Program-made: the position numbers and the translations under genes
Notes under the pieces: model-generated
Seen by the model: the letters and a program-made list of their open reading frames with translations, nothing else
The model's database searches: none
What the model was told of the DNA's origin: nothing
Part shown: positions 54,529 through 64,000 of the stretch, one piece after another
How the letters are laid out: the number at the start of each line of letters is the position of its first letter
Position numbering within the stretch: position 1 is the first letter of the stretch
NCBI GenBank assembly: GCA_030748575.1
Contig: JASMLR010000001.1
Coordinates: 62,001 to 126,000 of the forward strand
DNA from: Phycisphaerales bacterium
GTDB taxonomy: Bacteria > Planctomycetota > Phycisphaerae > Phycisphaerales > SM1A02
Direction of reading: 5' to 3'
Length of the DNA: 64,000 bases

Positions 54529-55484
54529 CCGAACCGGATCTCAATCAACTCCCAGCGGCCTTCTTGAAGCGACTGGAACTGCTGCTGGATCCGCCTGCGC
54601 GTGCGGCGTGGCAGCGGGCGGCTGCCAGATTGCCTATGAGTGTGCGGTGGACCGGGCCGCCGGGCCAGGAGTCCCGAGGCGCTGACTATCTGAAGGAACA
54701 CGGATTCGATCCCCACCCCATCGGTTGGGCACCTGATGCGTGGACGCTTCCCGGGGCGGCCCGCCGGTCGGTGACGGGGCTCGACTGGGTGCGGTCGCAG
54801 CAACTCTTTGTGCAGTCGGCTTCCAGCATGGCGGCCGTGCAGGCCCTGGGTGTGCAGCCCGGCCACGATGTGCTCGACCTCTGCGCAGCGCCGGGCGCCA
54901 AGACGTCGCTCATTCATCGGCGGCAGGAAGGCCGCGGGATTCTGGTGGCCAACGAACTCAGCCGTGCTCGGTCCCGCCGCCTTCACGCGCTGCTGTCCAG
55001 GCTTGACATCACCGGTGTCGAGATTCTGGTTGGCGGAGGGGAACACCTTGGCCGCTCGCATGCGCGGTGCTTCGATCGCGTGCTTGCCGACGTTCCCTGC
55101 AGTGGAGAGGGGCGGTTCCACCTGTCCGATCAGGCCACGTGGTCCAACTGGAGTGAGTCGAGCATTCGCGGGCTCTCCAGGCGGCAGACAGCGCTGCTTC
55201 AGTCGGCGTGCCACGCCTGTCGGCCGGGCGGTGAAGTGCTCTACGCGACCTGCACGATGGCTCCTGAGGAGAATGAGCAGGTGATTGATCGAGTGCTTTC
55301 AAAGGCGGACCCGCATGTGGAACTCCTTCCTGTGGACATGGACATTCCCGGTCGGCGGCCTGGCTTGCAGTCCTGGGGCGGCGTCGAGTTCAGCAACGAC
55401 CTCTCCCACGCCGTGCGCATTCAGGCGAACGAGATCATGACACCGTTCTTCATGGCCAGACTTCGAAAGGTGGGCAGCGTATGA
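54525..55484 (+). CDS. RsmB/NOP2-type RNA (cytosine-5) methyltransferase
   Basis: SAM-dependent m5C methyltransferase of rRNA or tRNA. The 319 residues lack the long NusB-like N-terminal domain of RsmB and have the compact RsmF/NOP layout. The SAM loop is VLDLCAAPGAKTSLI, the first catalytic Cys is in DVPCSGEG and the second in YATCTMAPEENE. The start is GTG at 54525, coupled to the cold-shock gene; the stop overlaps the next ATG (ATGA). Confidence 0.88.
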   Translation: MTEPDLNQLPAAFLKRLELLLDPPARAAWQRAAARLPMSVRWTGPPGQESRGADYLKEHGFDPHPIGWAPDAWTLPGAARRSVTGLDWVRSQQLFVQSASSMAAVQALGVQPGHDVLDLCAAPGAKTSLIHRRQEGRGILVANELSRARSRRLHALLSRLDITGVEILVGGGEHLGRSHARCFDRVLADVPCSGEGRFHLSDQATWSNWSESSIRGLSRRQTALLQSACHACRPGGEVLYATCTMAPEENEQVIDRVLSKADPHVELLPVDMDIPGRRPGLQSWGGVEFSNDLSHAVRIQANEIMTPFFMARLRKVGSV

Positions 55485-56275
55485 GTGGGCGAGCGTGGCT
55501 CTGCGTAGTGCTGGTCGCGGCTGCGGGGTGCCAGCCGGACCATGCGGCGATGGATGTGGCCTATCTCCGGGCGCACATGCCGCCAGCCGAGTTTGAGCGG
55601 CTCGAACCTGACCGCATGGCGCATCACACGCGCGTGATGCGCGCGGCGTGGATGGCGTCCCCTTGGCGAGAAGACGTGGACGAGACGCTCTGGCGTAACG
55701 CTGTCCTGCCGCCGACCCATGTTTCGGAAGCGTGTGAGGATTGGTGCGATGTGCTGGTCGTCCGGCTGAGGGGCGTGGGGGCGGACGCAATGAGCGTCCG
55801 GGAGACGGTCCAAGCCCTCAATGGTGCGATCGGCGACACACTCGGTGTGCAGTACCACCCGACGAAGCGACGCGCGCCGGATCAGGGACCGCTTGAGACG
55901 ATGGCATCGGGGTGGTCGTCCTGCACCGGCCTCTCCATTCTGCTTGCAGACGCATGCCGAACGCGGGGCATTCCCGCCCGCCTTGTTGGAACGCCGCGGT
56001 GGGTTGACGACAGTGGCAACCACACATGGGTGGAAGTCTGGGCCGACGGCGATTGGCACCATGTGGAGGCCGCCGATCCAACGTCGTGGGACGCGGCGTG
56101 GTTTGATGGCAAGGCGGCCAAGGCGGCAGGATCGGATGATCCCATGCATCGCATCTATGCAGTCATGCCTGACGGCCCGCTTGTCTTTCCGCTCGCGTGG
56201 GCGCCGGAGCGGCAGGACATACGCGCGGTCGATGTGACGGCCCGCTACGCCTTGCCGCAGGACGCATCACCATGA
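55481..56275 (+). CDS. transglutaminase-like lipoprotein
   Basis: A 264-residue exported lipoprotein. The signal ends in the lipobox VAAAGC, with Cys17 as the lipid site. The transglutaminase-like fold has Cys in SSCTGLSILLADACR, His in NHTWVEVW and Asp in EAADPTSW, a complete Cys-His-Asp triad. Such proteins are usually proteases or cross-linkers in the envelope. The ATG overlaps the methyltransferase stop (ATGA), and a strong hairpin follows the stop. Confidence 0.8.
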   Translation: MSGRAWLCVVLVAAAGCQPDHAAMDVAYLRAHMPPAEFERLEPDRMAHHTRVMRAAWMASPWREDVDETLWRNAVLPPTHVSEACEDWCDVLVVRLRGVGADAMSVRETVQALNGAIGDTLGVQYHPTKRRAPDQGPLETMASGWSSCTGLSILLADACRTRGIPARLVGTPRWVDDSGNHTWVEVWADGDWHHVEAADPTSWDAAWFDGKAAKAAGSDDPMHRIYAVMPDGPLVFPLAWAPERQDIRAVDVTARYALPQDASP

Positions 56276-56774: not shown

Positions 56775-58037
56775 TCAAGATCCTGCTGGGACGCTGTCCG
56801 CGACGACCTTGGCGGACTCGAGCATGTTCCATCCGGTGCGGCGGAACTGCGGGAATCGACCCATGGTGCCCGTAATCATGCGGACATCGTCGTTGTCAAT
56901 GGTCAGGGGTTTGTCCTGACCGGTCCATCCAACGAATCGCCTGTGCCCATCGAACTGGATCGAGAACACGCGTTCCCGCATGGCCCAGTTGTCAAGCCGT
57001 TCGGCGATCTCGTCGGCCTTGTTTGTGAAGAGCGCCAGCAACCGCTGAAGTTCCCGCTCATCTGAAATGTGGCGAAGCGCGATGTTGCACCCGAAGATGC
57101 ACCACCATCCGTAACTCTCAAGTAGATCTCCGGTCGCTGTATCGTCGAGATCGACCACCTCGGACATGGCGTCCAGAATGGTGGCTGCAGCACTCCGGGC
57201 GTCGATCCGGCCGAGCATGACCTCTGCTTCAAGCATGCCACCCCGGCACGTGCGGGCGATGCCCGCGGCAGTGGGGTGGTCCCGCCAGTCCAGCATGTGA
57301 AGCGCCTGCGTTGCCTCCTTGAGCGTGGTGTGCGCGATGGCCGCGTGCTGGTTGGCGTGGCCCGGATCGGCGTCGATCAGGCGGCGGTGCGTGCTTCCCA
57401 GCACGTAGAGCGTGAAGGCGTGCGTGCGACGATCGCGATCGGACACCGGCGCTCCGCTCTGAAAGTGGGCGACGATTTCGGCCGCAGTGGCCTGCGCTTC
57501 GGTCAGGTGCCACAGGCTGTAGCACGAGTTGGCGAGATTGCTCTGCAGCATTCGACGGACGTCAGACGGAATCGGAGCCTCGGTCAGGCCCTCCCGTGCG
57601 ATGTCCAGGCTGCGTGTGAAACGACCGAGCCCGTCCCAGGCGCCGAGCTCCCGGTTGCAGGCCAGGGCACGTTCCTCCGCCGTGCTGGCGGCGGACCTCG
57701 CCTTTCCTGCAAGCCTGATCATCTCACGGTAGTTGCCTTGACGGTGAGCTTCACCGGCGAGCGTGTCGAGCTCGTCGAAGGTTGCGTCGCCTTCGACCGG
57801 CGGGACGTCGCCGTCGGCGCCGCCCCAGAGACACTCAGTGACGTCGCCGACTGACCAGTCGAGTACGTCCGCGAGTTCCACGATGAGATCGAGTTTCGGG
57901 TTGCCGCTTGCCGGGATGATCTTGCTTGAATCCCGGCCGAGCGCTTCAGCCAATTCGCGTCGATTCCAGTTTCGGTAGACCTGCGCCAGTTCCACCAGAC
58001 GCTCGAGTCGCTTTCTCCTGTTACACATGTCAATCAT
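56775..58037 (-). CDS. XRE-type HTH regulator with TPR-like C-terminal region
   Basis: A 420-residue protein. Residues about 8-65 form a Cro/C1-type helix-turn-helix (NRRELAEALGRDSSKI, DLIVELADVLDWSVGDVTE). Residues about 85-330 are helical TPR-like repeats, as in peptide-sensing RRNPP/Rgg regulators. The C-terminus has a beta-like segment with FDGHRRFVGWTG. GGGGAG stands eight bases before the ATG at 58037. It is followed after 11 bases by a sorted secreted protein. It may sense a peptide or nutrient and control the exported product. No DNA target is proven. Confidence 0.72.
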   Translation of the reverse strand: MIDMCNRRKRLERLVELAQVYRNWNRRELAEALGRDSSKIIPASGNPKLDLIVELADVLDWSVGDVTECLWGGADGDVPPVEGDATFDELDTLAGEAHRQGNYREMIRLAGKARSAASTAEERALACNRELGAWDGLGRFTRSLDIAREGLTEAPIPSDVRRMLQSNLANSCYSLWHLTEAQATAAEIVAHFQSGAPVSDRDRRTHAFTLYVLGSTHRRLIDADPGHANQHAAIAHTTLKEATQALHMLDWRDHPTAAGIARTCRGGMLEAEVMLGRIDARSAAATILDAMSEVVDLDDTATGDLLESYGWWCIFGCNIALRHISDERELQRLLALFTNKADEIAERLDNWAMRERVFSIQFDGHRRFVGWTGQDKPLTIDNDDVRMITGTMGRFPQFRRTGWNMLESAKVVADSVPAGS

Positions 58038-58099
58038 GTCGGGTTCTCCCCTGGCGGTCATTCGCTGTCCGCCGAAAGTAGTGACGGGGTTCAGGTCCG

Positions 58100-58129
58100 G
58101 CGCCTTGGTTCCTCCGTGTACCAAGGCGC
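58100..58129. promoter_or_regulatory. perfect 9-base inverted repeat, operator candidate
   Basis: GCGCCTTGG and CCAAGGCGC are separated by 12 bases. The dyad begins 63 bases upstream of the XRE/TPR start codon and could be an autoregulatory operator. Confidence 0.5.
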
Positions 58130-58134
58130 GACGC

Positions 58135-58144
58135 GTGACGTCAC
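58135..58144. promoter_or_regulatory. 10-base palindrome GTGACGTCAC
   Basis: A perfect palindrome close to the first dyad, resembling CRE- or CRP-like half-site pairs. Function not shown. Confidence 0.35.
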
Positions 58145-58295
58145 AACTGCGAACATAGCGGTCGGTTGCGCCCTTTCGGAAGCCAATTGCCAAAACGCAT
58201 TGAGACGCTCTTGCGCCACGTTCCTCGCTTGAAGGTTCGTTGTTACAAGCGATGTTTGATCGGGGCGCGAGAGCGATCGCATCGTGTCCACAGCG

Positions 58296-58325
58296 GTGAT
58301 GCTTCGATGTCGTTTCAAGCATCAC
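58296..58325. promoter_or_regulatory. second perfect 9-base inverted repeat
   Basis: GTGATGCTT and AAGCATCAC are separated by 12 bases, exactly the arm length and spacing of the dyad at 58100. The arm sequence differs. It lies about 110 bases before the -10-like hexamer of the amidotransferase gene. Confidence 0.5.
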
Positions 58326-59437: not shown

Positions 59438-62400
59438 ATGCGACATGTGGCTCTGGCCGGGGTGTTTCTGACGGTCTGTGCCGTGACGACGCCGTCCTGG
59501 GCCGCTGGCCGGGACCGGGTCGAGATCGAGTCACCGCTGCGTCTGAGCACCCACGCGGCCGACTATGACGCCGCGCCGTCCAAGGCGTCGGTGCTTCGCA
59601 TGGATTCGGCCGCCGTCGGGACGCTTTGGGGCGCGTCCACCGTGTCGCTGCGGAACATCCCCATGCCCGCAGGCCCGGACGTCGATCTGGAACTTGAACG
59701 CGTGGCCAATCCCATCGAGGCGACGTGGCTCCTGGGTGACAATGGCTTCGGCGGCGTGCAGCGGACGTGGGTCCCCGCGGCCGATGTGGTGCTTCTGGCC
59801 GGCCATCTGGCGGGTCGCCCGGACCGGCGGGCGTTCATCGGGGTGTCGAACACGGCGGCGCAGGGATGGATCGAGACCGATGATGGTCTGCACCTGCTGT
59901 CGACGCCGCCCGATGGCGGGCCGACGCTGCTCTATCGCGTTGGCTCCGAGCGAGGGGGCATCGATATCGCGCCGCCGCCGCCGGCCGAGAGTGGACTGGT
60001 CCGGGCCACTGCTGACTCCGGTCTCGTCGGCTCGTCGAGCCGCGTTTCGCCTGCCGAGACGACCGCGAAGCCGCTGACCGATACCGAGCGGATCCTTGAC
60101 GCCCTGGCCGACCCGGACAGTTCGCTGTACGGCACCGTGTCCGGCGAGACGATTCTGCGTCTGCTGGACGTGCCGGTGGACGGCGATCGGGCGATGGTCG
60201 ACGTGGAGGACGCCCCGTTTGGCGCCTGCTGTCTGGCCCCGGGAGTGTGTATTCAGGAAACCGAAGCGGTCTGCGCGGCTTTGTGCCCCGGGTCGACGGA
60301 GGGCGACCTGATGTTTGACTTCTGCGGCAACCCCTCGGACCCGACCGATCCGCCTCCGTGCTGGCTGGGTGAGGGCGTTCCCTGCGACGAGCGGTGGGTC
60401 TGCTACGAGTCGGCGGAAGATGATCCTGACACGCCCGACGAAGAACCGTGGACGGGGAACTGGGTTGGCGCGTGCTGCTATCCGGATCCAGCCAACGACG
60501 GCGAGACGCTCTTTGAGGACAAGATGGCCTGCGAGTGCGCCATGTTGGGTGGCCGCTTCGTCGCCGTGCCTGCGTTCTGTCTGGGTGAGTATCTTCCCGA
60601 GCAGACGCCGGCAGAGAACTTTGTGTCGGTCGCCGAGATTGAGGCGATCGATGGGATGGAGAACGTTGACTTCTGCAGCCTGCCTGCGGGCGCGTGCTGC
60701 GTTGAGCAGAACGTCGTGTGTGCCGACGTCATCGACGACGAGGTGGTGCAGGAATTCTTCGAGCGTATCGGGTGTCTGTATATCCCGCAGGTGTTGTGCG
60801 AAGACGCCGACATCATGACGGCGACGTTCAGCGGGACGGGGGGCCCGGGTCTGTTCATCAAGGAGTGTTTTCCGTGTTCCTATGACGTGATTGGCCCGGA
60901 TGACGCCTTTCTCTGTAACGTCGAGGTTGAAGACAACACGCAGGCGCCTCTGAGCCCGAAGGGGGTCCGGTGTCAGACGCCCCGCATTGTCATCGACACC
61001 GACACGTGGTATCTGGAACGATTCAATGGCGATGTGGGCGCGGCTCAGGCCTATGCAACGCTTCTGATGGCATCATCGGCGTTCATGTTTGAGCGAGACG
61101 CGCTCGTCAGGCTGCAGATTGGCGAGTTGTTGTTGCGGTCCAGCGGTGTTCCGCCCTCGCTCAATAACCAGACACCTCGGCCCGTTCTCAACCCGTACTT
61201 GCCTGGGGCGTGCTGCGCGGGCGGCGTGTGCCATGAGAATCTCTCCTATGGCGATTGCATCAGCGAGTTCCTGCAGGGCGAGTGGCAGGGGCCCGGGTCA
61301 AGTTGCTGGGAGCAGTCAACGGACTGCGTAGGGGATCCCATCAACCCGGACGACCCACGGCCATGGACCATCACCAGCACGCTCAGCAACATGAACGCGG
61401 AGTGGACGACCGGAACGGCGGGGCAACTCGGTATCGGGTACGACATGGTGCTGCTGCTCTCCGGATTCCCATACGAGCGTTCGGAGCATCTGGAGCCCAC
61501 GTGGGGCGTCGTGACCCAGGGCATGGCGTCCGGCAACGCGACGATGTGCACCACCCAGTTCAATCCCTTTGCCGTCGCCGCGGTGCAGGGCTCCTTCCCA
61601 TATCCGGGAACATCATTCGAGTCGGATGACGTCAACTGGGACCCGGTCATGGTCAGCCAGGCTGTGGCGATGACGATCGGCGTCTCCGTGACCCGGGCCT
61701 ACGGGTACGACCGGTGCATCGGGCTTCCGTGTGAGTACGGGGCAGGCGCCAAGGCAGACTGTGATCTGCAACTGGCTCTCCCCGACTACGGCGACGGCAA
61801 GATGCCGCCGACCATCATGAGCAACTGCTATCTGTGCGAGGGCGGAACGGCCAACTTCCAGCTTCGTTTCCGCTCCGAGATCGCGGCGCGCATCTACGCC
61901 CGCCTTGCCAACCTCGACTGCGTGGCCGCCGGCAGCACGACCGCCGGGCCGCACGAGGTCCCGGACCCGGCCAGCCCAAGTGATTCGGTGGTGGTTCCTC
62001 TGGCCGCCGACGACGTGTTTCGCGTCCTCGGGGCCTCGCCGCAGTACTACGACGTTCTGGCCAATGATCTGGCCATCGAGTGCTCTGCGTTGTCCGACGG
62101 CGACCTTGAGATCCACTCGCTCTACGCACCAGCCGATGCAGATGCCTTGCCCGATCCACTTCCGGTTGACCCGGGCGGTCTGCCGACCGCGACCACGGCG
62201 GTCACCCTGCAGGGCGGAACTGTTGACATTGCGATCGACCCGGCCACCGGTCAGCAGGTGGTCCTGTACACGCCCCCCGCGGGCGGGATGTGCGGGATGG
62301 ACGTGTTCATGTACCTGCCCCAGAGTTCAGAGACCGACCCGGATACCGGGAACACGGTCTGGCGGCTGGCAGATGCGGTGGCAACGGTCAGCCTGATTCG

Positions 62401-64000
62401 CCAGCCGCAGGCTGCTGGTAGTACCACGGACGGCGTGTCCTGGGCGCAGTGCCCACCCGCCGCGTGCTGCGTGCCGAGCGGCCTGTGCTACGACGACTAC
62501 ACGCAGGCGCAGTGTGAGCAGGAACTGGGCGGAGATTGGTATCAGGGTCTTGCCTGCGGCGATGCTGCAGTGCCGTGCACGACGTTTGGCGGGGCGAATC
62601 CCTGCGTGGATGCAGCCCTTCAGGTGACGTATCACGCCAGCATCAACGAACCGCCAGCTGGGGGCACGCCTCCCACCCTGCCGATCGACCCCTGCCGGCT
62701 CGACCGCACCCAGATCGACGTGAACGCCCAGACCGGCGTGGTCAGCGGCGTGTCCTGGGACAATGTGGAGGCCACGATCACGGATGGCAATGTGACCCAG
62801 CCGGAGGAATTGATTCTCCGGTACTGGTTCGCCACCGTGCCTGGCGGGCCGCCCGATGAGTTTGTTGATGTGCGGCCCTTTGCCGACCCCGCAACGACGG
62901 TGGACTGCGGACCGACCGTGGCGCCACCGCTTCCGCTGGGTCCGTCCAGTGGAAGCTGCGGGATCGCCGGCGCGCGATACGTGCCGACGCAGAACGGCGT
63001 CACGGCCATTCCCCTGGAGTTCCTCGTGCAGCATGACCTGGTGCCCGGCGCCGATGCCTGCTGGCTCGCGGGGGGCTCCTTTGGCGTCTTTGTTGAGGAC
63101 GACGGCGGATACGGCGCTGTGGCGTCCACGGGGGCGTGCTGCGTGGGCGGTCTCTGCATAGAGACCAATCCCTTCGATTGCCTGGCCCTGGCCGGGTTCA
63201 CCCTCTCGGAAGACTACTGGTCGAGTGACGCAGACCCGAGCAATGATCCGGATCCCGATGGCGGCGAGCGGATGTGGAAGCGAACCGCCGCGTCATCCGG
63301 GTTCTTCATGGGTATCGGGACGACCTGCGACCAGCGAGATTGGTGCCGTCCGACGGCGCCCTGCTGCTACGACCTGGCCAGTGGTGAGCGAACGTGCTCG
63401 GTGCTGACCCCGGACGACTGCTGGACGGTGGGCACGACTTTGGGCAACGCCGACGCCGACTATGGGGTGGACTGGGGAACGATCGGGCAGGAGGGGGCGT
63501 TTGTCGATGCGACGACGCTCGACGGGACGCCCTGGTCTGATCTGGACGAGGCCGCCTGGGGTTTCGGGTGTGACTGGCCGACCTGTTTCGTCGAGGACCC
63601 GGCCGCGACGAGCATCGCCACGGCGGCGTGCTGTGTGCGCACGAGCGACGACACGTTCTGCACCGATCTCACCGAAGAGGCGTGCGCCGAGTTCGGCGTG
63701 GCCACCGGTTGGGAGACATCCTGGTCCGTGCAGGGTTCGTGTGATCAGATTCCCTGCGGCTCCTTCGGCGACGTTGCGTGGGGGGGCCCGCTTGGCGCCT
63801 GCTGCTATCAGTACGAAGGCGGGTCCGTGAACTGCGAGTCGGACCTCACGTTCGATGAGTGCATGAACACGTACCTCACGCCGGATGATCCCACCTTGAT
63901 TCCCAACTACATTCAGTTCCGACCCGGCGAGGCCTGCGGCCCATCCTCCGACTGCGATCTGGCGGACCCGCCGGACGAATTGGGGGCGTGCTGCATGTCC
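59438..64000 (+). CDS. giant exported GACC-repeat protein with reprolysin-like pseudoprotease domain, 3' end cut
   Basis: An open frame of 1521 codons from an ATG at 59438 to the window end. It starts with a signal peptide (HVALAGVFLTVCAVTTPSWA). Residues about 30-250 are Ala/Asp-rich. At least ten Cys-rich modules of the type GACC-x(n)-C-x(n)-C-x-GG-xW-xG-C begin near 60221, 60467, 60689, 61205, 62459, 63131, 63356, 63623, 63794 and 63985. Residues about 514-830 resemble an M12-type metalloprotease: RIVIDTDTWYLERF, GYDMVLLLSG and the Met-turn TIMSNCYLCEGG (Met794). Where HExxH is expected the sequence reads QAVAM (741-745), so it is catalytically dead. An Ig-like segment with DVLANDL follows. 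It is probably a disulfide-rich surface or matrix protein. Confidence 0.8.
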   Translation, partial: MRHVALAGVFLTVCAVTTPSWAAGRDRVEIESPLRLSTHAADYDAAPSKASVLRMDSAAVGTLWGASTVSLRNIPMPAGPDVDLELERVANPIEATWLLGDNGFGGVQRTWVPAADVVLLAGHLAGRPDRRAFIGVSNTAAQGWIETDDGLHLLSTPPDGGPTLLYRVGSERGGIDIAPPPPAESGLVRATADSGLVGSSSRVSPAETTAKPLTDTERILDALADPDSSLYGTVSGETILRLLDVPVDGDRAMVDVEDAPFGACCLAPGVCIQETEAVCAALCPGSTEGDLMFDFCGNPSDPTDPPPCWLGEGVPCDERWVCYESAEDDPDTPDEEPWTGNWVGACCYPDPANDGETLFEDKMACECAMLGGRFVAVPAFCLGEYLPEQTPAENFVSVAEIEAIDGMENVDFCSLPAGACCVEQNVVCADVIDDEVVQEFFERIGCLYIPQVLCEDADIMTATFSGTGGPGLFIKECFPCSYDVIGPDDAFLCNVEVEDNTQAPLSPKGVRCQTPRIVIDTDTWYLERFNGDVGAAQAYATLLMASSAFMFERDALVRLQIGELLLRSSGVPPSLNNQTPRPVLNPYLPGACCAGGVCHENLSYGDCISEFLQGEWQGPGSSCWEQSTDCVGDPINPDDPRPWTITSTLSNMNAEWTTGTAGQLGIGYDMVLLLSGFPYERSEHLEPTWGVVTQGMASGNATMCTTQFNPFAVAAVQGSFPYPGTSFESDDVNWDPVMVSQAVAMTIGVSVTRAYGYDRCIGLPCEYGAGAKADCDLQLALPDYGDGKMPPTIMSNCYLCEGGTANFQLRFRSEIAARIYARLANLDCVAAGSTTAGPHEVPDPASPSDSVVVPLAADDVFRVLGASPQYYDVLANDLAIECSALSDGDLEIHSLYAPADADALPDPLPVDPGGLPTATTAVTLQGGTVDIAIDPATGQQVVLYTPPAGGMCGMDVFMYLPQSSETDPDTGNTVWRLADAVATVSLIRQPQAAGSTTDGVSWAQCPPAACCVPSGLCYDDYTQAQCEQELGGDWYQGLACGDAAVPCTTFGGANPCVDAALQVTYHASINEPPAGGTPPTLPIDPCRLDRTQIDVNAQTGVVSGVSWDNVEATITDGNVTQPEELILRYWFATVPGGPPDEFVDVRPFADPATTVDCGPTVAPPLPLGPSSGSCGIAGARYVPTQNGVTAIPLEFLVQHDLVPGADACWLAGGSFGVFVEDDGGYGAVASTGACCVGGLCIETNPFDCLALAGFTLSEDYWSSDADPSNDPDPDGGERMWKRTAASSGFFMGIGTTCDQRDWCRPTAPCCYDLASGERTCSVLTPDDCWTVGTTLGNADADYGVDWGTIGQEGAFVDATTLDGTPWSDLDEAAWGFGCDWPTCFVEDPAATSIATAACCVRTSDDTFCTDLTEEACAEFGVATGWETSWSVQGSCDQIPCGSFGDVAWGGPLGACCYQYEGGSVNCESDLTFDECMNTYLTPDDPTLIPNYIQFRPGEACGPSSDCDLADPPDELGACCMS

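What the first reader, a model, noticed from the sequence alone, without database searches (positions are those of the whole stretch)
59438..64000. Inactive reprolysin-like domain embedded in a giant GACC-repeat protein
Residues about 514-830 keep the frame of an M12/adamalysin-type protease: the opening strand, GYDMVLLLSG, a VMV strand leading into the active-site helix, and a well-kept Met-turn region TIMSNCYLCEGG with LRF after it. At the position of HExxHxxxxxH the sequence is QAVAM and no His follows at the right spacing. The fold is thus kept while all zinc ligands are lost. The domain sits between GACC Cys-rich modules, so it may have become a binding or structural domain of a secreted matrix. 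Family pattern is recalled, not searched.
Basis: partly seen in the sequence, partly recalled or inferred. Interest (0 to 1): 0.85.

Follow-up and report, generated by a model that had tools for sequence, protein, structure and literature searches.

The report
Conserved dead protease in Cys-rich protein
A giant secreted, cysteine-rich protein of marine Phycisphaerales bacteria carries an ADAM/snake-venom-type (M12B) protease domain that has lost every zinc-binding residue in all ten relatives found, yet is the slowest-changing part of the protein, so it has most likely been reused as a binding or structural domain.

Summary
Residues 510-830 (window 60965-61927) are an M12B/reprolysin-type metzincin domain. 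A profile of intact relatives from the same bacterial class matches at 99 bits. Profile-profile comparison gives E 9.7e-31. The predicted fold matches acutolysin A over 196 of 197 residues, Z 19.9. At HExxHxxGxxH the window reads QAVAMTIGVSV: all three zinc histidines and the catalytic Glu are gone. The scaffold (7 Cys, Trp-Asp, Gly, Met-turn) is kept. All ten orthologues are dead at the same four positions, whereas all ~45 paralogues sampled across the class are intact. The dead domain has the lowest dN of the protein, so it is not a decaying relic. Best reading: a secreted disulfide-rich surface or matrix protein whose pseudoprotease is a binding/scaffold domain (function inferred). Dead M12B domains are well known in animal ADAMs. 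This bacterial, GACC-interrupted form is a new variant of that kind.

The parts
59438..64000 (+). Giant GACC-repeat pseudoprotease gene; continues past the window to about 64684 (1749 aa from 59438), ending in a weak dockerin type I match
   Evidence: Dockerin_1 E 0.0099 (below cut-off) at protein residues ~1699-1744
59438..59503 (+). Signal-peptide-like N-terminus MRHVALAGVFLTVCAVTTPSWA
   Evidence: read from the sequence; no signal-peptide program was available
59519..59947 (+). Propeptide-like domain shared with the intact Phycisphaerae reprolysins (residues ~28-170)
   Evidence: HMM of 46 intact N-terminal regions, 75.6 bits
60221..60890 (+). Three GACC Cys-rich modules between propeptide and pseudoprotease (approximate end)
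60965..61927 (+). M12B/reprolysin-type pseudoprotease domain, residues 510-830
61205..61327 (+). GACC module inserted inside the M12B domain, after the second strand (residues 590-630)
   Evidence: alignment with intact relatives, which lack it; predicted beta-beta-alpha-beta
61520..61534 (+). Former GGGxA segment (residues 695-699; by family knowledge the substrate-binding edge strand), conserved in intact relatives and lost here
61637..61690 (+). Dead active-site helix WDPVMVSQAVAMTIGVSV, residues 734-751; HExxHxxGxxH reads QAVAMTIGVSV
61811..61843 (+). Met-turn region TIMSNCYLCEG, residues 792-802, kept
61859..61921 (+). C-terminal helix region QLRFRSEIAARIYARLANLDC (residues 808-828), conserved specifically in the pseudoproteases
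61940..62437 (+). Big_9/cadherin-like region (approximate bounds), as in the intact paralogues
   Evidence: Pfam Big_9 in orthologues L042 and L043; no Pfam hit in the window protein itself
62459..64000 (+). C-terminal array of GACC modules (nine CC sites in all, the last three beyond the window)

Best explanation
The gene encodes a secreted, disulfide-rich surface or matrix protein that descends from an active exoprotease of layout signal peptide - propeptide - M12B protease - Big_9 - dockerin. The protease domain lost its three zinc histidines, catalytic glutamate and GGGxA segment, but kept its fold, all seven scaffold cysteines and the Met-turn. Cys-rich GACC modules were added on both sides and one was inserted into the domain. 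Shown: homology, complete loss of catalytic residues, loss fixed in all ten orthologues, retained propeptide, insertion, syntenic vertical inheritance, strong constraint. Inferred: the dead domain works as a protein- or polymer-binding scaffold, probably through the former active-site helix and the pseudoprotease-specific C-terminal helix, in an extracellular assembly held by disulfides. I put about 0.97 on the pseudoprotease identity and about 0.55 on the binding/scaffold role.
For: Homology and fold. Site loss; every orthologue is dead (H1 to Q/R, E to A/V, H2 and H3 to assorted residues) while all sampled paralogues keep HExxHxxxxxH. Single clade of nine at 100/100. Same locus between a class II glutamine amidotransferase and purD-uvrB in genera g1, g36 and g35. 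Propeptide retained. Own vs G007 dN: M12 domain 0.177, dead site helix 0.063, Met-turn plus C-helix 0.063, against propeptide 0.353, Big_9 0.474, C-terminal GACC array 0.356, purD 0.147. Five intact reprolysin paralogues in the same genome can supply the catalysis.
Against: No binding partner, expression, localisation or zinc measurement exists. dS is saturated (about 0.7 differences per synonymous site), so dN/dS is only indicative. The second AF2 model (pLDDT 72.7) used intact relatives in its alignment, and the segment between the active-site helix and the Met-turn is low confidence. GACC modules 1-3 have nearly the same dN (0.18) as the domain. Dockerin and signal peptide calls are weak or by eye.
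Confidence: 0.6

Rival explanations
1. The pseudoprotease regulates or decoys the active reprolysin paralogues of the same cell: it competes for their substrates, propeptides or docking sites, as some pseudoproteases do for their active relatives.
For: Five intact paralogues in the genome; the propeptide-like domain is retained.
Against: The GGGxA segment is lost, which argues against substrate-like binding in the cleft. The gene is not beside any intact paralogue. Intact paralogues are common in genera that lack the pseudoprotease.
Confidence: 0.18
2. The domain is a structural relic kept only because it lies in the middle of a large disulfide-linked protein; it has no interaction of its own.
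For: The scaffold residues are those conserved; insertion of a GACC module inside it is tolerated.
Against: It is among the slowest parts of the protein, and its former site helix and C-terminal helix are slowest within it; a C-terminal motif conserved only in the pseudoproteases has appeared.
Confidence: 0.2
3. A cryptic active enzyme using other ligands or another metal.
For: Conserved Asp residues (758, 774) remain, although 758 is also conserved in the intact enzymes.
Against: No conserved His remains in the domain; the general base is Ala/Val in all orthologues.
Confidence: 0.02

Closest known systems
Catalytically dead ADAMs (ADAM2, 11, 18, 22, 23, 32; PMC11266112 Table 2)
   Same: M12B fold; propeptide; HExxHxxGxxH degenerated with first His to Gln, Gly and Met-turn kept (ADAM2 QLLSLSMGITYD, ADAM22 QSLAHNIGIISD; here QAVAMTIGVSV). 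ADAM22 structures are among the top fold matches.
   Different: Bacterial; no disintegrin domain or membrane anchor was seen; a GACC module is inserted inside the domain; it descends from local Phycisphaerae reprolysins, so the loss is independent.
Intact Phycisphaerae reprolysin-like exoproteases (Pfam PF13688; e.g. G000:C44, 710 aa)
   Same: Signal peptide - propeptide - M12B - Big_9 - dockerin backbone; same seven cysteines and Met-turn
   Different: They keep HExxHxxGxxHTH and have no GACC module inside the domain; mostly 500-1000 aa.
GACC-bearing intact reprolysin of the same genome (G000:C66, 795 aa)
   Same: M12B domain together with GACC modules and dockerin-like C-terminus
   Different: Site intact (HEMGHNWNAGH); its three GACC modules follow the domain and do not interrupt it.
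Zincin families with substituted HExxH sites, CLCA and others (PMC3650047)
   Same: Documents that substituted HExxH sites occur also in bacteria and that the first His is often replaced by Arg or Gln
   Different: A different zincin family; no M12B member with this architecture was seen in the passages read.

Membership tests
Metzincin M12B (reprolysin/adamalysin) fold | Sequence homology to M12B domains | tested here: met
   99 bits to HMM of intact class members, hhalign E 9.7e-31; direct Pfam scan does not reach it
Metzincin M12B (reprolysin/adamalysin) fold | Three-dimensional M12B fold | tested here: met
   Predicted model: Z 19.9, 196/197 residues to acutolysin A; top 50 rows all M12B
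Metzincin M12B (reprolysin/adamalysin) fold | Met-turn | tested here: met
   M794 aligned to the Met-turn Met in all rows
M12B active peptidase | HExxHxxGxxH zinc ligands and general base | tested here: not met
   All four positions substituted in all ten orthologues
M12B active peptidase | Peptidase activity and bound zinc | not testable with these tools
   needs purified protein
Pseudoenzyme (pseudopeptidase) | Catalytic residues lost while the domain remains under selection | tested here: met
   caveat: dS saturated
ADAM family (animal) | Disintegrin domain and membrane anchor | tested here: inconclusive
   No Pfam match to a disintegrin domain at E<=1; C-terminus is dockerin-like; no transmembrane program was run
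Dockerin type I / GC-type dockerin | C-terminal duplicated Ca-binding dockerin repeat | tested here: inconclusive
   Below Pfam cut-off in the window protein (E 0.0099), 5.7e-4 in orthologue L043

The most novel reading that the evidence does not exclude
A bacterial lineage independently evolved a counterpart of the pseudo-ADAMs: a dead M12B domain fixed in two to three genera, interrupted by Cys-rich GACC modules that insert as units (one inside the domain in g1 and g36, a second in G043), with the former active-site helix and a new C-terminal motif recruited as the binding surface of an extracellular matrix protein.
Probability: 0.45. Interest if true: 0.6.

Novelty: new variant of a known kind. 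Interest (0 to 1): 0.48.

Why it matters
Pseudoproteases of the ADAM type are known mainly from animals, where they act in cell adhesion and synapse assembly. A vertically inherited, selectively constrained bacterial case with intact paralogues in the same genome gives an independent replicate of how a metzincin is turned into a non-catalytic domain. It also shows a small Cys-rich module invading a folded domain without destroying it. It warns annotators too: Pfam and NCBIfam miss the domain completely.

Tried and rejected
Direct Pfam, NCBIfam and PDB sequence searches of the domain found nothing useful; homology appeared only through related genomes. The first structure model (nine pseudoprotease sequences, pLDDT 50) was weak, though its matches were already M12B. 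An unrelated fold was rejected. HExxH elsewhere was rejected. Sequencing error or a recent pseudogene was rejected: ten genomes, no stops. Horizontal mobility: no plasmid match; synteny indicates vertical descent. G042's place in the tree is a long branch and unsure; its orthology rests on synteny. Literature searches found no paper on GACC modules or on a bacterial M12B pseudopeptidase, but subscription journals are not held.

Full report
What is there. The ORF from 59438 encodes a protein that continues beyond the window; the genome (window = G000:C11:62001-126000) gives 1749 aa in all. It starts with a signal-peptide-like stretch and carries 99 cysteines and thirteen CC sites, mostly in GACC modules. 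It ends in a weak dockerin match.

Homology and fold. Pfam and NCBIfam see nothing in the window protein. Its relatives in the same class include many intact reprolysins that Pfam recognises strongly, e.g. the 710-aa paralogue at G000:C44, Reprolysin_5 E 1.5e-22. An HMM built only from 22 intact domains matches the window domain at 99 bits. Two separately built alignments, pseudo and intact, match at hhalign probability 99.9 and E 9.7e-31. The AF2 model built with intact relatives added to the alignment (mean pLDDT 72.7, pTM 0.77) aligns 196 of 197 residues of acutolysin A at Z 19.9, and every one of the top 50 rows is M12B, including the dead ADAM22.

The dead site. Intact: NWDLVVMAHELGHNFGTMHTHD. 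Window: NWDPVMVSQAVAMTIGVSVTRA. Residues 741, 742, 745 and 751 (H, E, H, H in every intact row) are Q, A, M and V. Across nine pseudoproteases H1 is Q or R, E is A or V, and H2 and H3 are assorted; the second His of HTH and the GGGxA segment at 695-699 (by family knowledge the substrate edge strand) are lost too. What is kept is scaffold: seven Cys (512, 704, 760, 775, 797, 800, 828), W734, D735, G748, T752 and M794. No HExxH exists anywhere in the protein. The degeneration pattern parallels animal pseudo-ADAMs (QLLSLSMGITYD in ADAM2, QSLAHNIGIISD in ADAM22; PMC11266112) and fits the general trend of first-His to Arg or Gln (PMC3650047).

Distribution and descent. In all 181 genomes held of the family, the gene occurs in 7 of 9 genomes of the window's genus, in both hits of genus g36, and as a divergent copy in G042 (g35). 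Samples of the order (400), class (397) and phylum (392) add none. Named hits are marine Phycisphaerales MAGs, e.g. ALOHA and Arabian Sea. Nine form one clade (100/100, site columns left out). The gene lies between a class II glutamine amidotransferase and a small gene plus purD and uvrB, conserved through all three genera including G042; in G043 only the purD-uvrB side was seen. In genus g5 (G012) the amidotransferase lies directly beside the small gene and purD-uvrB, with no giant gene.

Order of events (inferred). G042 is dead and carries flanking GACC modules, but has no module inside the domain. g1 and g36 have one inside, and G043 has a second at another loop. If the G042 copy shares the loss, the site died before the domain was interrupted; its long branch leaves an independent loss possible.

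Is it used? Between the window's species and G007 the dead domain has dN 0.177, level with the first three GACC modules (0.18), lower than the propeptide (0.353), Big_9 (0.474) and C-terminal GACC array (0.356), and near purD (0.147). The former site helix and the Met-turn plus C-terminal helix are lowest at 0.063. dS is saturated, so the comparison of dN among parts is the safer statement. A motif QLRFRSEIAARIYAR at the C-terminal helix is conserved only in the pseudoproteases. The propeptide is retained. Together these argue for a recruited binding/scaffold domain rather than decay. The partner is unknown.

What is ordinary and what is not. Dead M12B domains are a known kind, and substituted HExxH sites are known in bacteria. 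What is unusual is a vertically fixed bacterial M12B pseudoprotease, slowly evolving within a giant disulfide-rich protein and interrupted by a Cys-rich module. I rate it a new variant of a known kind.

Noticed in passing
G000, 20 ORFs; window 60221-64000; alignment A7: The GACC module (consensus GACCxxGxCxDxxTxxxCxxxxGxWxxxGxxCxxxxxC) is not recognised by Pfam or NCBIfam and occurs 38 times in about 20 ORFs of this genome: an uncharacterised Cys-rich domain of this class.
   Followed up: partly
L154:1121-3505 (G000:C66): An intact reprolysin paralogue (HEMGHNWNAGH) with three GACC modules directly after the protease domain: GACC and M12B are combined more than once.
   Followed up: partly
L043 (G043:C91), L044 (G042:C9): G043 has a second GACC module inserted in another loop of the dead domain; G042 has a dead domain with no insert.
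   Followed up: partly
window 55481-56275: Transglutaminase-core protein (Transglut_core E 3.5e-14) in the same neighbourhood, with relatives near the orthologues in G001 and G002.
   Followed up: no
window 56775-58325 (-): Conserved neighbour with HTH/TPR look (by eye) and no Pfam match, found near this locus in genera g1, g35, g5 and g8.
   Followed up: no
L036:8506-8685, L045, L046, L154: Intact paralogues tend to end in a Cys-bearing dockerin tail (..TPC..GGC..GCS) whereas nearly all pseudoprotease orthologues end without Cys (..TEWE..VHWE); anchoring may differ.
   Followed up: no
L096-L128: 33 IMG/VR contigs called viral encode reprolysin-like domains, most with an intact HExxH.
   Followed up: no
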